From an uncultured Woeseiaceae bacterium (GTDB lineage Bacteria > Pseudomonadota > Gammaproteobacteria > Steroidobacterales > Woeseiaceae), in the NCBI GenBank assembly GCA_902512585.1, contig CABXJW010000008.1:1-45538 (forward strand): a stretch of 45,538 bases of DNA, read 5' to 3'. Under the pieces are notes generated by a model that saw nothing but the letters and a program-made list of their open reading frames with translations, did not search any database and had not been told where the DNA came from. The first letter of the stretch is position 1. Each line of letters begins with the position of its first letter. Below, one piece after another: positions 5,432 to 12,102 of this stretch. Made by a program: the position numbers and the translations under genes.

Positions 5432-6706
5432 ATGATTATGTCATATACACAAACAATCAGCTCATTACTTGAAAATCTCTTCGAAAAAAGTATCAAGGCC
5501 CCAACACAACTTTTATTTAAAAAAAGTAAGCCAAAAGACGGAGTATACCAAGTACTACAAAGATTAATTAACACTAAAAGTAATACCTCAAGAGTAAAGT
5601 ATGCAAAAGATTTTTTTGCTGAGGTAGATTTACTAAGTGATGCTGAGTTTAAAAATTTTATGCTCCATTTACGTGACCAGAGAGATATTGATACTGAATT
5701 ACTCAAACTTTGCACAGAAAACTACATCAATGATGATTCTGAGATTAACTATATTAAATTACAAGAAGTCCTAACTACCGAAAGAAAGGACCTCTTCAGA
5801 AAGCTCAATTGTTTTGATGAATCGACTATCCACCTTGTTAATCTCAGAAAGAGGATACTTGCCAATTCAACTACCAATCAAAATTTTCAAAAAGTGGAGC
5901 ATGATCTTAAAACTCTATTTATTGATTGGTTCAATAGAGGATTCTTAATACTAAAACCTATTGACTGGAATACTCCTGCCTCAATATTGGAAAAAATCAT
6001 CAAATATGAATCAGTACACCAAATAAATAACTGGCGAGAATTAAGGGACAGAATAGATTCACATGATCGCAAATGTTTTGCTTTTTTTCATCCAGCTATG
6101 GCAACAGAACCACTAATTTTTGTTGAAATTGCATTCCTTGATAAAATGCCTAACAAGATTAACACCATACTAGATACTCAGCGAAACATGCTCAGTGAAT
6201 CAGAGGCGAATACAGCTGTATTTTATTCCATTTCCAACTGCCAGAGGGGTTTGGATGGGATCTCATTTGGAAACTTTTTACTAAAAGAGGTGGTTACTTT
6301 CATTGAGAAGGAAATCCCCAATATCAAAAATTTTATTACGCTTTCACCAGTACCAAGATTTATGACCTGGCTTAAAACTCATGATACTGATCTACACACC
6401 GCAATAATGGCATCGCCGCAAACAGAAAATATCAGCAAGTATGAAAAACAACTTAATATCCACATAAGAGATTATTTGTTGATCTCTAAAAGGGAGGACC
6501 AGAAACCCAATGACCCAGTATCGAGGTTTCATCTAGGGAATGGAGCATCATTACACCGTATAAACTTTATGGCAGATACTTCAAAAAATAATTTGCTAAA
6601 AAGCGCCTCTTTCATGGTTAATTATAAATATGACAACAAGAATATTGAAAAAAACCATGAACAATACACTAAGCATAATCGGGTCATTGTAAGAAAAAAT
6701 ATTTAA
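5432..6706 (+). CDS. Malonyl-CoA decarboxylase
   Basis: A 424-residue enzyme converting malonyl-CoA to acetyl-CoA and CO2 (MCD family, GNAT-like catalytic domain). The N-terminal half is helical. The C-terminal half carries FHPAMATEPLIFVEIAF, FYSISNCQRGLDGISFGNFL, ITLSPVPRFMTWL and FHLGNGASLHRINFMAD, the last including the conserved catalytic His. The C-terminus NYKYDNKNIEKNHEQY is also typical. An ATG six bases downstream (5438) is an alternative start; neither has a strong ribosome site. No malonyl-CoA synthetase or malonate transporter is adjacent, so it may tune malonyl-CoA levels rather than serve a malonate operon. Confidence 0.92.
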   Translation: MIMSYTQTISSLLENLFEKSIKAPTQLLFKKSKPKDGVYQVLQRLINTKSNTSRVKYAKDFFAEVDLLSDAEFKNFMLHLRDQRDIDTELLKLCTENYINDDSEINYIKLQEVLTTERKDLFRKLNCFDESTIHLVNLRKRILANSTTNQNFQKVEHDLKTLFIDWFNRGFLILKPIDWNTPASILEKIIKYESVHQINNWRELRDRIDSHDRKCFAFFHPAMATEPLIFVEIAFLDKMPNKINTILDTQRNMLSESEANTAVFYSISNCQRGLDGISFGNFLLKEVVTFIEKEIPNIKNFITLSPVPRFMTWLKTHDTDLHTAIMASPQTENISKYEKQLNIHIRDYLLISKREDQKPNDPVSRFHLGNGASLHRINFMADTSKNNLLKSASFMVNYKYDNKNIEKNHEQYTKHNRVIVRKNI

Positions 6707-6764
6707 ATTAGGGAATAATAATTTAATTCAAACCTCTTTTTTCACGCTGGATTAATACCTATTT

Positions 6765-7181
6765 TTATAGGACGAGGAAAACTCCTAAATCCACCATTAA
6801 ATACACATTTGCCAAGAAACCGGTAATATAAAAAACACTTCTAATACTCGGATTTCTATCAGTAGCAACAATGTAGTATAAGAACATATGGATAATTCTA
6901 GAAATGGCATATACCCATACAATAATCGTTAATACACTAGCCGTATAATCTACCATTATTGCAATAATGCTCATCCCAAAAATTGGTACTATATTTTCTA
7001 ATGAGTTCCAAAAAGTTCTATAAGCTCTAAATAAGAAAGAGTCTTGACCGAGGGAGGCATCCATCACACCAACCTTGTAGCTTTTTTGCTTTCTGTGCGC
7101 TCGAATTAAAATGATTGCCTGAATAATAATTGTACTTAATATGAGCCATAATCCAGTATATACTTGCTGATACTCATCCAT
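6765..7181 (-). CDS. MAPEG family membrane protein
   Basis: A 138-residue protein with four hydrophobic segments and the MAPEG (membrane-associated eicosanoid and glutathione metabolism) pattern: RAYRTFWNSLENIVPIFGM, followed by the RIIHMFLYY segment. Bacterial MAPEG proteins are inner-membrane proteins, some with glutathione transferase or peroxidase activity. It is convergent with malonyl-CoA decarboxylase (58-bp gap) and lies downstream of the MerC gene on the same strand, separated from it by an inverted repeat at 7222-7252. Confidence 0.85.
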   Translation of the reverse strand: MDEYQQVYTGLWLILSTIIIQAIILIRAHRKQKSYKVGVMDASLGQDSFLFRAYRTFWNSLENIVPIFGMSIIAIMVDYTASVLTIIVWVYAISRIIHMFLYYIVATDRNPSIRSVFYITGFLANVYLMVDLGVFLVL

Positions 7182-7221
7182 ATTTTTTAATCCTTAGTGT
7201 ATTAATGACAGAATACTTATG

Positions 7222-7252
7222 TTACCTCACTTCATTAATTAAAGTGAGGTAA
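7222..7252. repeat. Perfect 11-bp inverted repeat, possible terminator or operator
   Basis: TTACCTCACTT and AAGTGAGGTAA flank a 9-base spacer in the gap between the MerC stop (7292) and the MAPEG start (7181). It could end the zinc-region transcript, but no strong T-run follows on the minus strand, so an operator for the MAPEG gene is equally possible. Confidence 0.6.
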
Positions 7253-7291
7253 TAGATTTAAAAGAATTAATTTAACTATAGAAAAATAATT

Positions 7292-7693
7292 TTATTCTTC
7301 ATGACAAGAGCAATCTAGGTTAATGCAAACTTGGTAGTTTTTATAGTGTGAGTAAGTAACAAAAATAGTACCCAACAAAGTCAATCCTTTTTCACCATAT
7401 TCACCCAGCATTCTCTCGCCCAATAGCACTGCCAGAATAAGTATTAATAATCCCAATATACCAATGAGTAGAAAGGAAATGGTTTTATGATTTTTATAAC
7501 CCATAGTCAAAGCAAAAATACTGATAGGAACTGCTAATAATAGAATCATCTTATGCATAAACTCATTATCATAAGAAAAAGAAAGAAAAGCAGAAGTTAA
7601 GATAATAAATGAAGGGGCGAATAAGCAATGGATTAAGCATATCATGGATAATGACATAGCAAATTTATCCGTTGTTAGTTGTGTTCTAATCAT
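7292..7693 (-). CDS. MerC-domain membrane protein
   Basis: A 133-residue protein with four hydrophobic helices. The N-terminal DKFAMSLSMICLIHCLFAP carries the MerC pattern with its Cys/His near the first helix, and the tail ends in CINLDCSCHEE, a plausible metal-binding motif. MerC was named for mercury uptake, but MerC-domain proteins also occur beside zinc-responsive TonB receptor genes; the ZnuD-like receptor upstream makes zinc the likelier metal here (inference). It lies 82 bp downstream of the 59-residue microprotein on the same strand. A partial Zur-like sequence overlaps its start codon. Confidence 0.82.
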   Translation of the reverse strand: MIRTQLTTDKFAMSLSMICLIHCLFAPSFIILTSAFLSFSYDNEFMHKMILLLAVPISIFALTMGYKNHKTISFLLIGILGLLILILAVLLGERMLGEYGEKGLTLLGTIFVTYSHYKNYQVCINLDCSCHEE

Positions 7694-7702
7694 AATTATA
7701 AC
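7691..7702 (-). promoter_or_regulatory. Weak Zur-box-like sequence over the MerC start
   Basis: On the minus strand this reads GTTATAATTATG. One half matches the Zur half-site GTTATAA and the other is imperfect. It overlaps the ATG, which is near where the stronger site lies at the small exported gene. Low confidence; AT-rich DNA gives such matches by chance. Confidence 0.25.
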
Positions 7703-7775
7703 TCTCTACACGAAACAACTCCGTAATAATGACCAAAAGCTGATCTAGATTGGATATTATTTCTAACTTTTAAAT

Positions 7776-7955
7776 TCATTCCCCGCTATCAGAAACTAAC
7801 TTCATTTTCGATGAACCAATTAATAACAAACCAAAAATCAGCATAAATAAAAACGGACCAATAATTGAAATTTTTGGCTTTGCGGTCGCCATCCAAATAT
7901 CCCCAAACATCGGAATCTGATCGAATGTTTTAGTTAAGTTTTTCGTTTCAATCAT
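7776..7955 (-). CDS. 59-residue membrane microprotein in the zinc cluster
   Basis: A short ORF between the zinc receptor and MerC genes. It starts at ATG 7955 with GGAG eight bases upstream and ends with TGA at 7776-7778. The protein has a polar N-terminus (MIETKNLTKTFDQIPMFGDI), one strong hydrophobic helix around residues 29-47 (SIIGPFLFMLIFGLLLIG) and a short charged tail, giving a single-pass membrane topology. I do not recognise the family. The first ten residues resemble an ABC ATPase start, but no Walker motif follows. Position and strand suggest co-expression with the receptor, perhaps as a small partner of MerC or of a TonB/Exb complex (inference). The good ribosome site and AT-biased third positions support it being real. 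Confidence 0.65.
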   Translation of the reverse strand: MIETKNLTKTFDQIPMFGDIWMATAKPKISIIGPFLFMLIFGLLLIGSSKMKLVSDSGE

Positions 7956-7992
7956 ATTGATTGCTCCAAGTTAGTGAGAATTTGACGGAGAG

Positions 7993-8029
7993 GCAAGGAT
8001 TCAAATCCGGGGAAGATTTGAATCCTTGC
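7993..8029. repeat. Perfect 15-bp hairpin between receptor and microprotein genes
   Basis: GCAAGGATTCAAATC and its exact complement GATTTGAATCCTTGC enclose a 7-base loop, CGGGGAA. It lies between the TonB receptor stop (8082) and the microprotein start (7955). No T-run follows on either strand, so it is probably not a simple terminator. An intercistronic RNA-stabilising or processing hairpin that sets receptor against downstream expression is the best inference. Confidence 0.8.
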
Positions 8030-8081
8030 ACTAGTTGAGAAACAGTTAGTCCGCCAGTTGAGTTCTTAAACTATCAATAAT

Positions 8082-10208
8082 TTAGAACTTCACACTAAAA
8101 CTTACACCAATATTTTTTCCTGCTAAGGGAACCTCGTTTTTAACAAATGAAGAGTGATTTCGTGCCACCTCATTGAGTAAATTATGACCGAATACTGATG
8201 CAAATATCTCTGTTCCTGATTCAGAAACAAACTTCTGACTGAATCTAGCATCCAACATTTTAAAGCCTTTGGTCACCGTTTCATTCAAACCAATATCGTT
8301 TTGCTCTTGAACATCCTTCAGTACCAAACTAAATCGAGCACCCTGTTCCTTCGAGTACAATAATGAATAAATATTCCTTTCAGGAGTCATCCTGGGAATA
8401 TTGCCCCCATCATTAAATTCACCTGATATAGAATCTTTGGCTATTGATAATTCTAAATTGCCATCATATATATTAAATGTTCTACCTAGTTCTAATTCAT
8501 AACCAGTTAATTGGGCATCTTTTTGTCTATAATTAGCAACAGTAAGATTCTCTTCTTTCTTCGCTGAATCCATAATATAAATATAGTCATCTACATTGTT
8601 GTTAAACATTGTGAATGTCCCAAAAAAACCACTTTGATTGTAATTTAGAGTTAGGTCGATATTTCTTGACCTTTCTTTATCAATGCTTGTGTTACCTATT
8701 TCAAACCTGCCTGTTGCTAGGTGTGGCCCATTCATATAAAGCTCAACCGCTGATGGAGCTCGCTCTACGCTTGCCATATCCAAACTAACATTGAAATATT
8801 CATTAATGTTTCGATTAAGACTTATGGCCAAACTGTCATTTTCGAAATCCTTGTCAAAATAATCTATTTCTTCCTCATGCTCCTCGTGCTCATGACCTTC
8901 TTCCTCTTCTTCATGATGCGCAACGGAACCTTTTCTATTGATACGGTCATGTCTGATGGCCAGATCAAAGTTAAATAAGTCTAAATCTGTGCTGACATAA
9001 TAGCCAAATGAGAATTCTTTATTATCAGAGGGCTTCATGAATGCTTCATGACCAATGATTGAAATATCTTCTTGTATCATATTAATCACTGTTCGTTGCG
9101 AGAGTTTGTCAGTTGAAAAATCAACCACGACACCAAATTCCTGCGCCTCATTATTGAAGGTTGTCGGCCCCTCTTCATGCCCATGATCATCTTCCTCTTC
9201 TTCATGACCAGCTTCCTCAGCATGCTGCTCAATTAGGGAATACTCAGTCCCTGCATAAAAGTAATCAATTTTTTTCAAAGCGCTATCTGAAAAAATATAA
9301 GAGCCTTCTAAGTTAAATACTTCAGAATCGGAGGTGACAAATATTCTTTCTTCCTCATGCTCACCCTCTTCCTCCTCTTCATGCTCTTCACCATGAAATG
9401 GAACTCCATAAAGACTCTCTATTCCACGATAAGAGAGGCCCACATAACCCCAATCACCGGTCTTGGAGACACCAATACGTTGCGACTCACTTTCATAATC
9501 AGAATTTGTTAGATATTTTGGATTCTCTTCATGCTCTTCATGCTCATCTTCGTGCTCTTCTTCATGCTCTTCTTCATGTATTATCGCACCGAAAGGTATT
9601 TCAAATTTCTCAAAACTTGAATCTTTATAAGCCAAACTAAAATTCAAACCACCTAGATTATTTTGATAAGACATTTCTCCAGATTTACCGCCATTGACTG
9701 TTTGAGCTTCACCTCCTATGCGTAACTCTGATTCCAAAAAGTCAGTTCTAGCAATAGTATTATCAACCACGTTAATAATTCCGCCTGTAGTACCATTGGA
9801 ATAGAATATTGATGAAGGACCTCTGATGACTTCAATTTGTTGAATATTATTGAGGTCAATATCATTTATATGATCAGCGCCAATACCAGCGACATCACGA
9901 TTTACCCTACCATTACTCATTATTTTTACACGATTCCCAGACATTCCACGAATAACTGGTTGGCCTACTCCTGAACCATAATCGGCGGAGGATACACCCA
10001 GAAGATTGTCTATTGTTTCTCCAAGGCTCTGGGTTGCCATATTTGAGACAGCATCACCATCCAAAAGATGGATTGGGTTATGAATACTATTTAAGTTTTT
10101 TTCTATGTAAGAGGAAGTTACAATTATTTCCTCTATTACATCCTGTGCAAGGACATTATTTATATTTATTACACTCAATAATATGAGTGCACATCTGATT
10201 TTTTTCAT
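8082..10208 (-). CDS. TonB-dependent receptor with His/Glu-rich loops, ZnuD-like (probable zinc uptake)
   Basis: A 708-residue outer-membrane receptor. It has a signal peptide, a TonB-box-like segment near EEIIVTSSY, a plug with PVIRGMSGNRVKIMSNG, a GADH segment and QQIEVIRGPSSIFYSNGTTG, then a beta-barrel ending in VSFSVKF with a terminal Phe. Four acidic/His blocks lie at about residues 207-227, 271-287, 327-347 and 426-446, probably extracellular loops that capture metal. This matches the ZnuD group of zinc receptors, where His-rich loops are known. GGAG precedes the ATG by eight bases. The upstream small exported gene carries a Zur-box-like site, so induction by zinc starvation is likely. 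Nickel or copper is a less likely substrate. Confidence 0.9.
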   Translation of the reverse strand: MKKIRCALILLSVININNVLAQDVIEEIIVTSSYIEKNLNSIHNPIHLLDGDAVSNMATQSLGETIDNLLGVSSADYGSGVGQPVIRGMSGNRVKIMSNGRVNRDVAGIGADHINDIDLNNIQQIEVIRGPSSIFYSNGTTGGIINVVDNTIARTDFLESELRIGGEAQTVNGGKSGEMSYQNNLGGLNFSLAYKDSSFEKFEIPFGAIIHEEEHEEEHEDEHEEHEENPKYLTNSDYESESQRIGVSKTGDWGYVGLSYRGIESLYGVPFHGEEHEEEEEGEHEEERIFVTSDSEVFNLEGSYIFSDSALKKIDYFYAGTEYSLIEQHAEEAGHEEEEDDHGHEEGPTTFNNEAQEFGVVVDFSTDKLSQRTVINMIQEDISIIGHEAFMKPSDNKEFSFGYYVSTDLDLFNFDLAIRHDRINRKGSVAHHEEEEEGHEHEEHEEEIDYFDKDFENDSLAISLNRNINEYFNVSLDMASVERAPSAVELYMNGPHLATGRFEIGNTSIDKERSRNIDLTLNYNQSGFFGTFTMFNNNVDDYIYIMDSAKKEENLTVANYRQKDAQLTGYELELGRTFNIYDGNLELSIAKDSISGEFNDGGNIPRMTPERNIYSLLYSKEQGARFSLVLKDVQEQNDIGLNETVTKGFKMLDARFSQKFVSESGTEIFASVFGHNLLNEVARNHSSFVKNEVPLAGKNIGVSFSVKF

Positions 10209-10249
10209 TTCGATCTCCGGTATAGATAAAGTTAATTAATACAATAAAA

Positions 10250-10528
10250 TTAAACTTTACTAATAGGAGGCGCTCTGGAGTGAAAGTTACTGAAGTATGC
10301 AGATATGTAGATCTCAATCTTTTCAATGGCGAGAGAGCCCTGGAATGAGAAATTTGCAATAAAATTATTAACGTTAAATGAATCTGAAATATCATTGCCA
10401 CAATGATTACATTCAAAATGAACTGTCTCTGTATTTATTTCATCACAAGAAAAAGCATGTAATGTTGACGAACAAGCAAAGAGCAAGCCAATTATCAGAA
10501 TAATAGTTTTATTATTTAAATACTTCAT
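10250..10528 (-). CDS. Small exported Cys-containing protein upstream of the zinc receptor
   Basis: A 92-residue protein with a signal peptide (KTIILIIGLLFACSSTLHA) and a mature part bearing C-x2-C in CNHCGND and a C-terminal SRAPP motif. Small exported proteins of this layout, ending in RAPP, occur upstream of zinc receptors in other gammaproteobacteria, as far as I recall. LFAC could also serve as a poor lipobox. Function is unknown; a periplasmic metal carrier or sensor is an inference. It is first in the operon: the gap to the receptor is 41 bp, and the promoter and Zur-like box abut its ATG. An overlapping ORF in another frame (10156-10416) has no signal peptide and was not chosen. Confidence 0.75.
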   Translation of the reverse strand: MKYLNNKTIILIIGLLFACSSTLHAFSCDEINTETVHFECNHCGNDISDSFNVNNFIANFSFQGSLAIEKIEIYISAYFSNFHSRAPPISKV

Positions 10529-10532
10529 AAGT

Positions 10533-10545
10533 GTTATAATATAAC
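10533..10545 (-). promoter_or_regulatory. Zur-box-like operator
   Basis: GTTATAATATAAC, with six-base inverted arms around a central A, plus flanking TG on one side, matches the core of the gammaproteobacterial Zur consensus (TGTTATA-N-TATAACA). It ends four bases upstream of the ATG of the small exported gene at 10528 and covers the -10 element, so bound Zur would block transcription. No zur gene is in the window. Confidence 0.7.
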
Positions 10546-10565
10546 GTAATGATCATATTAAGCAA
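10538..10565 (-). promoter_or_regulatory. Predicted promoter of the zinc operon, nearly leaderless
   Basis: On the minus strand TTGCTT (10565-10560), a 16-base spacer and TATATT (10543-10538) form a plausible sigma-70 promoter. Transcription would start a few bases before the ATG at 10528, and no Shine-Dalgarno sequence is present, so a leaderless or near-leaderless mRNA is predicted. Inference from sequence only. Confidence 0.5.
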
Positions 10566-10601
10566 AATATTTTAAAAAATTGCTTGGTAAAATCAGCTTA
10601 T

Positions 10602-11246
10602 TCAAGCTTTCTTAGCGAAATCATCATAATGGAAATATTTAATTCCTTGAGATTTTCTTGATGTAACCATGGTCTTAGCAACTAAATCTGCCCTGACACA
10701 CTTATATTTACTGAATGCTCCCATCAGAAGAAAGTTTATTAGGATGAAGCACTTTTGACCTATATCTTCCATAAACCTGGGCTCACTTCGAGCCCCTAAA
10801 AGTAAACCAGGACGAAATATATTGGTACTCATAAAATCTAATGCTTCAATTTTCTTTTCTATTTTACCTTTGGTACTTAAATAGAAGTTATTTGAAGATA
10901 CATCTGCGCCCACCGAAGAGATAAGGCTCACTTTCAGTGCTCCAGCCTTTTTTGCTTTTTCAGCTAAAGCAATGGTGTAATCATGATCTATTTTCTTGAA
11001 GTTATTCTTATTACCCGCCTTTTTTATAGTTGTCCCCAGACAAAGAAATAAATGATCACACGTTGGAAAATTGCCATTACAAATAAAATCATCAAAATCA
11101 ACTATCAAATTATCAATATTACTGCTTAGATTTGACATAGATCTTCGTGTAATAGCGATGACTTTATTCTCTTTTTTACTCAAATGATGGCACACTAAAT
11201 TACCGACAAGACCTGTTGCACCTATTACGACCGAAATTTCTGACAT
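10602..11246 (-). CDS. NAD(P)-binding Rossmann protein, TIP30/HTATIP2-like atypical SDR
   Basis: A protein of about 214 residues with the dinucleotide-binding motif VIGATGLVGNLV at the N-terminus, then LFLCLGTTIKKAG, VSLISSVGAD, a possible YLSTKGKIEKKI active-site segment (Tyr-x3-Lys) and NIFRPGLLLGARSEPR. These match the atypical short-chain dehydrogenase group that includes TIP30/HTATIP2 and bacterial nucleoside-diphosphate-sugar epimerase-like proteins. Substrate is unknown. The ATG at 11246 is preferred over an in-frame GTG three bases upstream. It is divergent from the NTF2-like gene across about 160 bp. Confidence 0.85.
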   Translation of the reverse strand: MSEISVVIGATGLVGNLVCHHLSKKENKVIAITRRSMSNLSSNIDNLIVDFDDFICNGNFPTCDHLFLCLGTTIKKAGNKNNFKKIDHDYTIALAEKAKKAGALKVSLISSVGADVSSNNFYLSTKGKIEKKIEALDFMSTNIFRPGLLLGARSEPRFMEDIGQKCFILINFLLMGAFSKYKCVRADLVAKTMVTSRKSQGIKYFHYDDFAKKA

Positions 11247-11408
11247 CACACTAAACTCATTAATTATCTAATTATTTTTCATTACATCATGAATAAAATT
11301 TTTACGTTCCAAGATTTAACCATAATTCATCATAAGAATAAGTTTAACTCAACAAAGTAAATACTGCTCTATTCATCCTAACTAGGTTTGTTGTATTATT
11401 AGCTTATT

Positions 11409-11888
11409 ATGATTACACCAAAAAATACTTGTGAGAAAGACATAATTGAATTTCTTACATCATGGAAAGATGGAATACTTGATATTGGAAAAGCATTCCG
11501 TAACCATGAGAATTACGAAGAAAAAGCAGAAGCATTCATACACAAACATTATGCCTTTGAAGATGAACAAGTTTTATTTAAGCCCACCTATACTAAAGAT
11601 GTAATATTTAGGAATGACTTTGATCAAGCGCTGTCTTATTTTATATCCGGCAATATTGCTGAAGACTCCGGATTTGCTATAAAACCATGGTTGGATATTT
11701 CTACAACTGACATTAATTTTATAATCGAAGATCAACTCTGCGCTGTAATGGGTGTACTTGAACTCAAAGCAGAAGCCTCTACAAGCATTGCTGTAATTGC
11801 TTTCACATTTGTATTGATAAAAACTAAAACAAAGCTAAAAATCAAAATTCACCATTCTTCTGAAATAAGCTCTAAATTACTAATTTAA
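11409..11888 (+). CDS. NTF2-like fold protein (often mislabelled phosphoribosyl-AMP cyclohydrolase)
   Basis: A 159-residue soluble protein with an N-terminal helix, then YAFEDEQVLFKPTYT, ALSYFISGN and EDSGFAIKPWLDIS, followed by a beta-rich C-terminus. This pattern recurs in a conserved bacterial family with an NTF2/SnoaL-like cone fold that databases sometimes call phosphoribosyl-AMP cyclohydrolase; the zinc-ligand Cys pattern of HisI is absent, so I reject that name. Function is unknown. It converges on the DUF2805 gene, with only four bases between the stops. Confidence 0.65.
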   Translation: MITPKNTCEKDIIEFLTSWKDGILDIGKAFRNHENYEEKAEAFIHKHYAFEDEQVLFKPTYTKDVIFRNDFDQALSYFISGNIAEDSGFAIKPWLDISTTDINFIIEDQLCAVMGVLELKAEASTSIAVIAFTFVLIKTKTKLKIKIHHSSEISSKLLI

Positions 11889-11892
11889 AAGT

Positions 11893-12102
11893 CTATTTGT
11901 AGCTGTATCTTCTATCAGAGAAAGAGCGGACTCGCTTTCGCCAAGCTCTATAAGAACCTGTTTTTAGATTTTCTCGCATCAGTTTTTTTACTTCATTCTC
12001 ACCTAGACCATACTGTGTTTTTATATTTTGGAAAGTAACATGATCAGAGAGTGCCATCTGAATAACTTCACTTACTTGATCTTTAGAAAGTTCTTTTTTC
12101 AT
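11893..12102 (-). CDS. DUF2805 / TIGR03643 small protein
   Basis: A 69-residue basic protein matching the DUF2805 pattern: IQMALSDHVTFQNIKTQYGL, GENEVKKLMRENLK and SYRAWRKRVRS. The centre reads like a helix-turn-helix and the C-terminus is rich in Arg/Lys, suggesting nucleic-acid binding (inference). The family is widespread and uncharacterised. It is last in a minus-strand run with the aminotransferase and a small membrane protein, 26 bp from the latter. Confidence 0.85.
   Translation of the reverse strand: MKKELSKDQVSEVIQMALSDHVTFQNIKTQYGLGENEVKKLMRENLKTGSYRAWRKRVRSFSDRRYSYK

What the first reader, a model, noticed from the sequence alone, without database searches (positions are those of the whole stretch)
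7292..10565. Candidate zinc-starvation operon with an undescribed microprotein
One strand carries a Zur-like operator, a small exported Cys protein, a His/Glu-rich ZnuD-like receptor, a perfect hairpin, a 59-residue membrane microprotein and a MerC-domain protein. Receptor plus MerC near Zur sites is known; the full set with the microprotein is not one I recognise. A possible division of labour: receptor brings zinc across the outer membrane, exported Cys protein carries it in the periplasm, MerC and the microprotein act at the inner membrane.
Basis: partly seen in the sequence, partly recalled or inferred. Interest (0 to 1): 0.7.

Follow-up and report, generated by a model that had tools for sequence, protein, structure and literature searches.

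The report
Zinc operon with a deletion scar
A marine bacterium's probable zinc-starvation operon is real, but the supposed new microprotein in it is the stump left when most of a three-gene transporter was deleted.

Summary
The 59-aa "microprotein" is not a gene of its own. Another genome labelled the same species (98.1% identical over 4,058 bp) has in its place an ABC ATPase beginning MIETKNLTKTFDQ, then a permease. The rest of the window ORF is 53-63% identical to the C-terminus of that transporter's second permease, present in two congeners. The ORF is thus an in-frame join of ATPase codons 1-13 with the end of permease 2, after loss of about 3.3 kb at a short shared repeat. Two other congeners keep different stumps of the same module. 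The lost module has the make-up of Caulobacter znuGHI, which is Zur-repressed. The rest is a plausible Zur-type zinc-uptake operon. A CxxC protein also lies just before ZnuD in 15 of 20 chosen, more distant loci. In ten genomes searched no ZnuB passed the cut-off and no ZIP was found, so MerC is the remaining Zur-linked inner-membrane candidate. That last step is inference; nothing was tested at the bench.

The parts
10533..10545 (.). Zur-type operator, GTTATATTATAAC on the coding strand
   Evidence: Exact palindrome; 0.00 expected per window; one-mismatch version at nearly the same distance from the start in G004 and G002. Binding not tested.
10250..10528 (-). Small exported CxxC protein ending RAPPISKV (92 aa)
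   Evidence: ORF; hydrophobic N-terminus, CxxC, R[AG]PP shared with congeners; no Pfam family over its cut-off.
8082..10208 (-). ZnuD-like TonB-dependent receptor (708 aa) with His/Glu-rich stretches
   Evidence: PF07715 and PF00593 over cut-off; best NCBIfam name ZnuD, 218 bits, under its cut-off of 950.
7993..8029 (-). Hairpin between receptor and former ATPase gene, no U-tract
   Evidence: exact pattern once each in G000, G099 and G002 of 9 genus genomes; similar hairpin in G004.
7776..7955 (-). 59-aa ORF: deletion scar joining the start of an ABC ATPase to the end of ABC-2 permease 2
7917..7955 (-). Part of the scar from the ATPase gene (codons 1-13, MIETKNLTKTFDQ)
   Evidence: 13 of 13 residues identical to same-species G099; DNA compared.
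7776..7924 (-). Part of the scar from permease 2 (from the shared TTCGATCA on)
   Evidence: 53-63% identical to the permease C-termini of G003 and G005 over 38-43 residues.
7292..7693 (-). MerC-family membrane protein (133 aa)
   Evidence: PF03203 89.5 bits against 27.6.

Best explanation
The region is a Zur-type zinc-uptake operon of a small-genome Woeseiaceae bacterium. It once read: operator, CxxC protein, ZnuD-like receptor, a znuGHI-type ABC transporter (one ATPase, two ABC-2/DUF3526 permeases), MerC. In the window's genome about 3.3 kb of the transporter was lost between two short copies of a TTCGATCA-like repeat, one in codons 11-13 of the ATPase and one near the end of permease 2. Both copies are read as FDQ in frame, so the join kept the frame and left a 59-codon ORF with the ATPase's start site and the permease's last membrane helix. 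This much is shown by sequence, except that the right-hand repeat of this very species is inferred from congeners. The rest is inferred (about 0.7): low zinc releases Zur, the receptor brings zinc into the periplasm, the CxxC protein binds it or hands it on, MerC carries it across the inner membrane. The 59-aa peptide, if made at all, probably has no function.
For:: outside the window's own genome the only strong hits among 99 genomes (9.2e-12 and 3.6e-11; the next is 0.015) fall in 463- and 505-aa frames of congeners G003 and G005, the C-termini of ABC-2/DUF3526 permeases. G099, labelled same species, 98.1% identical over 4,058 bp, goes on into an ATPase beginning MIETKNLTKTFDQNTVLEG and then permease 1; window and G099 agree through AAAACATTCGATCA, then part; permease 2 of G005 holds TTTCGATCAAATCCC; between ZnuD and MerC, G002 keeps 68 aa of the ATPase and G004 keeps permease-2 residues 363-420. 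Zur-like boxes (2 mismatches or fewer) at 8 of 22 CxxC genes (0.39 expected) and 11 of 21 MerC genes (0.26 expected), 0 in both controls; no ABC-3 permease over cut-off and no ZIP in 10 of 10 genomes. (PMC4176598, passages): Caulobacter znuGHI, an ABC-2 system next to receptor znuK, is Zur-repressed.
Against: Permease 2 is not on the G099 contig. G099's ATPase itself has a frameshift near codon 180, so an intact transporter is not proven in that genome. The fused ORF is in frame with an inherited start region and its tail still resembles intact permeases, so expression is not excluded. No Fur-family gene was found in the window's assembly, which is 65.7% complete. No box with 2 mismatches or fewer was found at the CxxC gene of G001, G005 or G006, and three of the eight boxed CxxC genes are from this one genus. 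No zinc response was measured.
Confidence: 0.9

Rival explanations
1. The fusion ORF is a new, working membrane microprotein born from the deletion. It would be made from the ATPase's start site and sit in the inner membrane beside MerC.
For: In frame; start region shared with G099; one hydrophobic helix; tail 53-63% identical to intact permeases.
Against: Found whole in 1 of 9 genus genomes; absent from G099, labelled the same species; G002 and G004 have other stumps in the same gap. The frame follows from both repeat copies being read as FDQ.
Confidence: 0.05
2. The junction is an assembly error in the window's genome and the transporter is whole in the cells.
For: G099 reads on into the ATPase; the shared repeat is a possible mis-join; the window's genome is an incomplete draft in 71 contigs.
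Against: The shared repeat is only about 8-10 nt, short for a mis-join (general knowledge); G002 and G004 show independent losses at the same place.
Confidence: 0.05
3. The operon serves another metal, such as iron, copper or mercury, and the palindrome is bound by another Fur-family protein.
For: The receptor is far under the ZnuD cut-off; MerC is known for mercury (PMC12193353, passages); Fur-family genes are present in 8 of 10 genomes, in up to three copies.
Against: The operator has the Zur form published for Caulobacter; no mer gene among the 8 neighbouring proteins scanned; Zur-like boxes also precede other MerC genes.
Confidence: 0.15

Closest known systems
Caulobacter crescentus znuK and znuGHI (CC1517-CC1520), PMC4176598, passages seen
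   Same: Zur-controlled TonB receptor beside an ABC-2 ATPase and two ABC-2 permeases; like operator (GATGTTATATCATAACAAT printed for znuK).
   Different: In the window the ABC module is deleted to a scar, and MerC and CxxC/RAPP genes belong to the cluster. No direct sequence comparison with CC1518-1520 was made; PF12040 rings in the Caulobacter control genome.
ZnuD zinc receptor (NF038289)
   Same: Best-scoring named NCBIfam family; TonB-dependent receptor.
   Different: 218 bits against a cut-off of 950: a distant relative.
MerC (PF03203)
   Same: Clear family member.
   Different: Lies with a zinc-type receptor and a Zur-type operator, not with mer genes.
DUF2946 (PF11162)
   Same: Small proteins from comparable loci match it: L141 34 bits (over the cut-off of 23.7), L109 22.8 bits, L140 14.6 bits.
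   Different: The window protein has no DUF2946 match at E up to 1.

Membership tests
Independent microprotein gene | The same ORF conserved as a separate gene in relatives | tested here: not met
   Whole in 1 of 9 genus genomes; the strong outside matches are ends of full-length permeases.
znuGHI-type ABC-2 transporter | One ATPase and two ABC-2/DUF3526 permeases, whole, in the window | tested here: not met
   Only both ends remain; PF12040 finds nothing in G000. All three genes are read in G003 and G005.
znuGHI-type ABC-2 transporter | Sequence orthology of the congeners' module to CC1518-1520 | not tested
   No Caulobacter locus was among the 80 kept.
ZnuD (NF038289) | Score over the curated cut-off | tested here: not met
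   218 against 950 bits.
TonB-dependent receptor | Plug and beta-barrel domains | tested here: met
   PF07715 60.3 and PF00593 66.9 bits, both over cut-off.
MerC (PF03203) | Score over the curated cut-off | tested here: met
   89.5 against 27.6 bits.
Mercury-resistance operon | Neighbouring mer genes such as merR, merT, merA | tested here: not met
   No other mer family among the 8 proteins scanned from 5432 to 12102.
DUF2946 (PF11162) | Score over cut-off for the window protein | tested here: not met
   No match at E up to 1.
Zur regulon | Zur-type palindrome at the promoter | tested here: met
   Exact GTTATANTATAAC.
Zur regulon | Zur binding and zinc-dependent repression | not testable with these tools
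   Needs an experiment.

The most novel reading that the evidence does not exclude
In this genus of small-genome Woeseiaceae, Zur-controlled MerC proteins have taken over zinc import across the inner membrane. ZnuABC and ZIP appear to be absent and the znuGHI-type transporter is being lost separately in several species. MerC would be a zinc importer fed by the ZnuD-like receptor and the CxxC protein.
Probability: 0.3. Interest if true: 0.6.

Novelty: new variant of a known kind. Interest (0 to 1): 0.35.

Why it matters
It shows how a deletion scar can pass for a new microprotein when sequence is read alone, and how a genome of the same species settles it. What remains is testable: a receptor, a CxxC protein and MerC with Zur-like operators, in bacteria where no ZnuB over cut-off and no ZIP was found. 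Which protein carries zinc across the inner membrane there is open, and MerC, known for mercury, is the first candidate.

Tried and rejected
Rejected: (1) the 59-aa ORF as a conserved microprotein. (2) The hairpin as tRNA or known RNA: no tRNA in the window or at the hairpin in the loci scanned; the only Rfam match in 6500-11500 is a below-cut-off snoRNA model at 8137-8208, E 0.96. (3) The hairpin as a dispersed repeat: one place each in 3 of 9 genus genomes. (4) The hairpin as an ordinary terminator: no U-tract, not reported by the scan, unlike the hairpin with a T-run after ZnuD in G001. (5) A viral home for the receptor: no relative confirmed in viral contigs, a weak test with two peptide patterns.

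Led nowhere: NCBIfam named neither permease beyond a weak GldF match. Paper searches: DUF3526 with zinc, none; ZnuD, MerC and Zur together, one review, listing only; MerC, zinc, Zur and TonB together, one review, whose MerC passages concern mercury; DUF2946 with zinc, three, of which only the Caulobacter paper was opened. A word-start search for MerC also catches mercury and author names; PMC10563805 has no MerC. PMC6103462 was seen in passages. These searches cover the held library only.

Caveats. The 20 ZnuD loci L108-L127 were chosen (best-scoring, plus some with MerC on the contig), not all 46 genomes with a hit; the R[AG]PP ending was the search term, so its presence there is by selection. 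In one search, of 30 MerC loci, 21 were counted: 4 in a ZnuD cluster were set aside by me and 5 had no ATG start. Related genomes are not independent events. In one search the receptor profile rests on 9 sequences and the MerC profile on 21, permease 2 was not annotated, and boxes were counted anywhere in a locus. In one search, of the six long ORFs with a box, only those of L141 and L146 were also matched by the ZnuD query. One-mismatch Zur-like places on G000 C4 and C29 were fetched but their genes were not examined. Most genus genomes are incomplete; absence rests chiefly on G004 (99%), G007 (93%) and, outside the genus, G072 (92%).

Full report
What is there. On the minus strand, in order, lie a Zur-type palindrome (10533-10545), a 92-aa exported CxxC protein, a 708-aa ZnuD-like TonB receptor, a hairpin, a 59-aa ORF and a MerC protein. 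The palindrome is exact and expected 0.00 times per window; it is the only exact match in the 1.11 Mb assembly. It ends 4 nt before the start codon of the CxxC gene; G004 and G002 carry a one-mismatch version 3 nt before the corresponding codon.

What the microprotein is. In 99 genomes the 59-aa protein has two strong matches outside its own genome, in long open frames of congeners G003 and G005. These are 458- and 481-aa ABC-2/DUF3526 permeases, matched at their C-termini. In both genomes the permease is the last of a row MerC, ABC ATPase, permease 1, permease 2, with a one-mismatch Zur-like box before MerC. The N-terminus MIETKNLTKTFDQ is that of the ATPase. G099, labelled the same species, is 98.1% identical to the window over 4,058 aligned bp, window 7918-11958. 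Where the window's ORF turns to permease sequence, G099 reads on through the ATPase, which has a frameshift near codon 180, into permease 1, where its contig ends. The two agree through AAAACATTCGATCA; permease 2 of G005 holds TTTCGATCAAATCCC. Deletion between these short copies, about 3.3 kb by the G005 coordinates, gives the window's ORF.

Parallel loss. The same gap between ZnuD and MerC holds 68 aa of the ATPase in G002 and permease-2 residues 363-420 in G004. In G001, G005 and G006 ZnuD is followed by a MAPEG gene instead. DUF3526 is found in 2 of the 8 genus genomes (G003, G005); G099 was not in that search. The module is being lost separately within the genus.

What the lost module was. 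It has the make-up of Caulobacter znuGHI, an ABC-2 ATPase and two ABC-2 permeases next to receptor znuK, shown there to be Zur-repressed by microarray, lacZ fusions and gel shift (PMC4176598, passages). PF12040 rings in one of 14 control genomes, Caulobacter vibrioides; that genome is not among those ringing for ABC-3 or ZIP. Among 80 named loci with a related permease (the best 80 of 136), a receptor was found in 31, MerC in 20 and a Zur-like box with one mismatch or fewer in 10. In seven of the 20 (L225, L229, L234, L244, L245, L247, L250) MerC lies about one permease length after permease 1, and in three (L234, L244, L250) a receptor follows MerC. In 6 of 20 DUF3526 loci of unnamed relatives such a box lies at the start of, or before, the long ORF preceding the ATPase. 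MerC and ZnuD lie within about 11 kb of each other in 10 of the 46 genomes with a ZnuD hit (my reading).

The CxxC protein. Small ORFs of this kind sit directly before ZnuD in the six genus genomes with ZnuD, in G099, in G072 and in 15 of the 20 chosen distant loci; the misses are L110 and L124-L127. Of 22 aligned, 20 have CxxC (not G072, G065), and most have a His soon after the hydrophobic segment. Zur-like boxes (2 mismatches or fewer) lie at 8 of 22, against 0.39 expected, 3 at most in 300 shuffles, and 0 in the control; three of the eight are from this genus, while G001, G005 and G006 have none.

MerC and the inner membrane. MerC genes outside the ZnuD cluster have Zur-like boxes in 11 of 21 cases, 0.26 expected, 3 at most in shuffles, 0 in the control. 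A further MerC in the window's genome has a one-mismatch box about 50 nt upstream. No ABC-3 permease passes the cut-off in 10 of 10 genomes (G006 has one match just under it, 18.6 against 20.1 bits) and no ZIP was found in 10 of 10; the controls ring in 13 and 8 of 14. A Fur-family gene was found in 8 of 10, not in G000 or G005. MerC as zinc importer is an inference by exclusion; NRAMP, CorA and phosphate transporters were not searched.

Verdict. A plausible Zur zinc-uptake operon, a variant of a known kind, in which the supposed microprotein is a deletion scar.

Noticed in passing
window 6765-7181: A MAPEG-family gene stays near ZnuD in the six genus genomes with ZnuD but changes place: after MerC here, before the CxxC gene in G002 and G004, directly after ZnuD in G001, G005 and G006.
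   Followed up: partly
window 10528-10545: The Zur-type operator ends 4 nt before the ATG of the CxxC protein (3 nt in G002 and G004), leaving little room for a leader; translation may be leaderless or begin further in.
   Followed up: no
L155 6666-7129 (G000:C1): A further MerC gene with a one-mismatch Zur-like box about 50 nt upstream; a MerC copy outside the ZnuD or znuGHI cluster is found in 7 of 8 genus genomes.
   Followed up: partly
window 7993-8029: Strong hairpin with conserved arms and varying loop between ZnuD and the former ATPase gene in G000, G099, G002 and G004, without a U-tract.
   Followed up: partly
L156 1231-1290: The ATPase gene of same-species G099 has a frameshift near codon 180; real decay or a sequencing error.
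   Followed up: no
L225, L229, L234, L244, L245, L247, L250: In named relatives MerC follows the znuGHI-type module, and in three of the seven a receptor follows MerC: MerC plus znuGHI looks like a recurring unit.
   Followed up: partly
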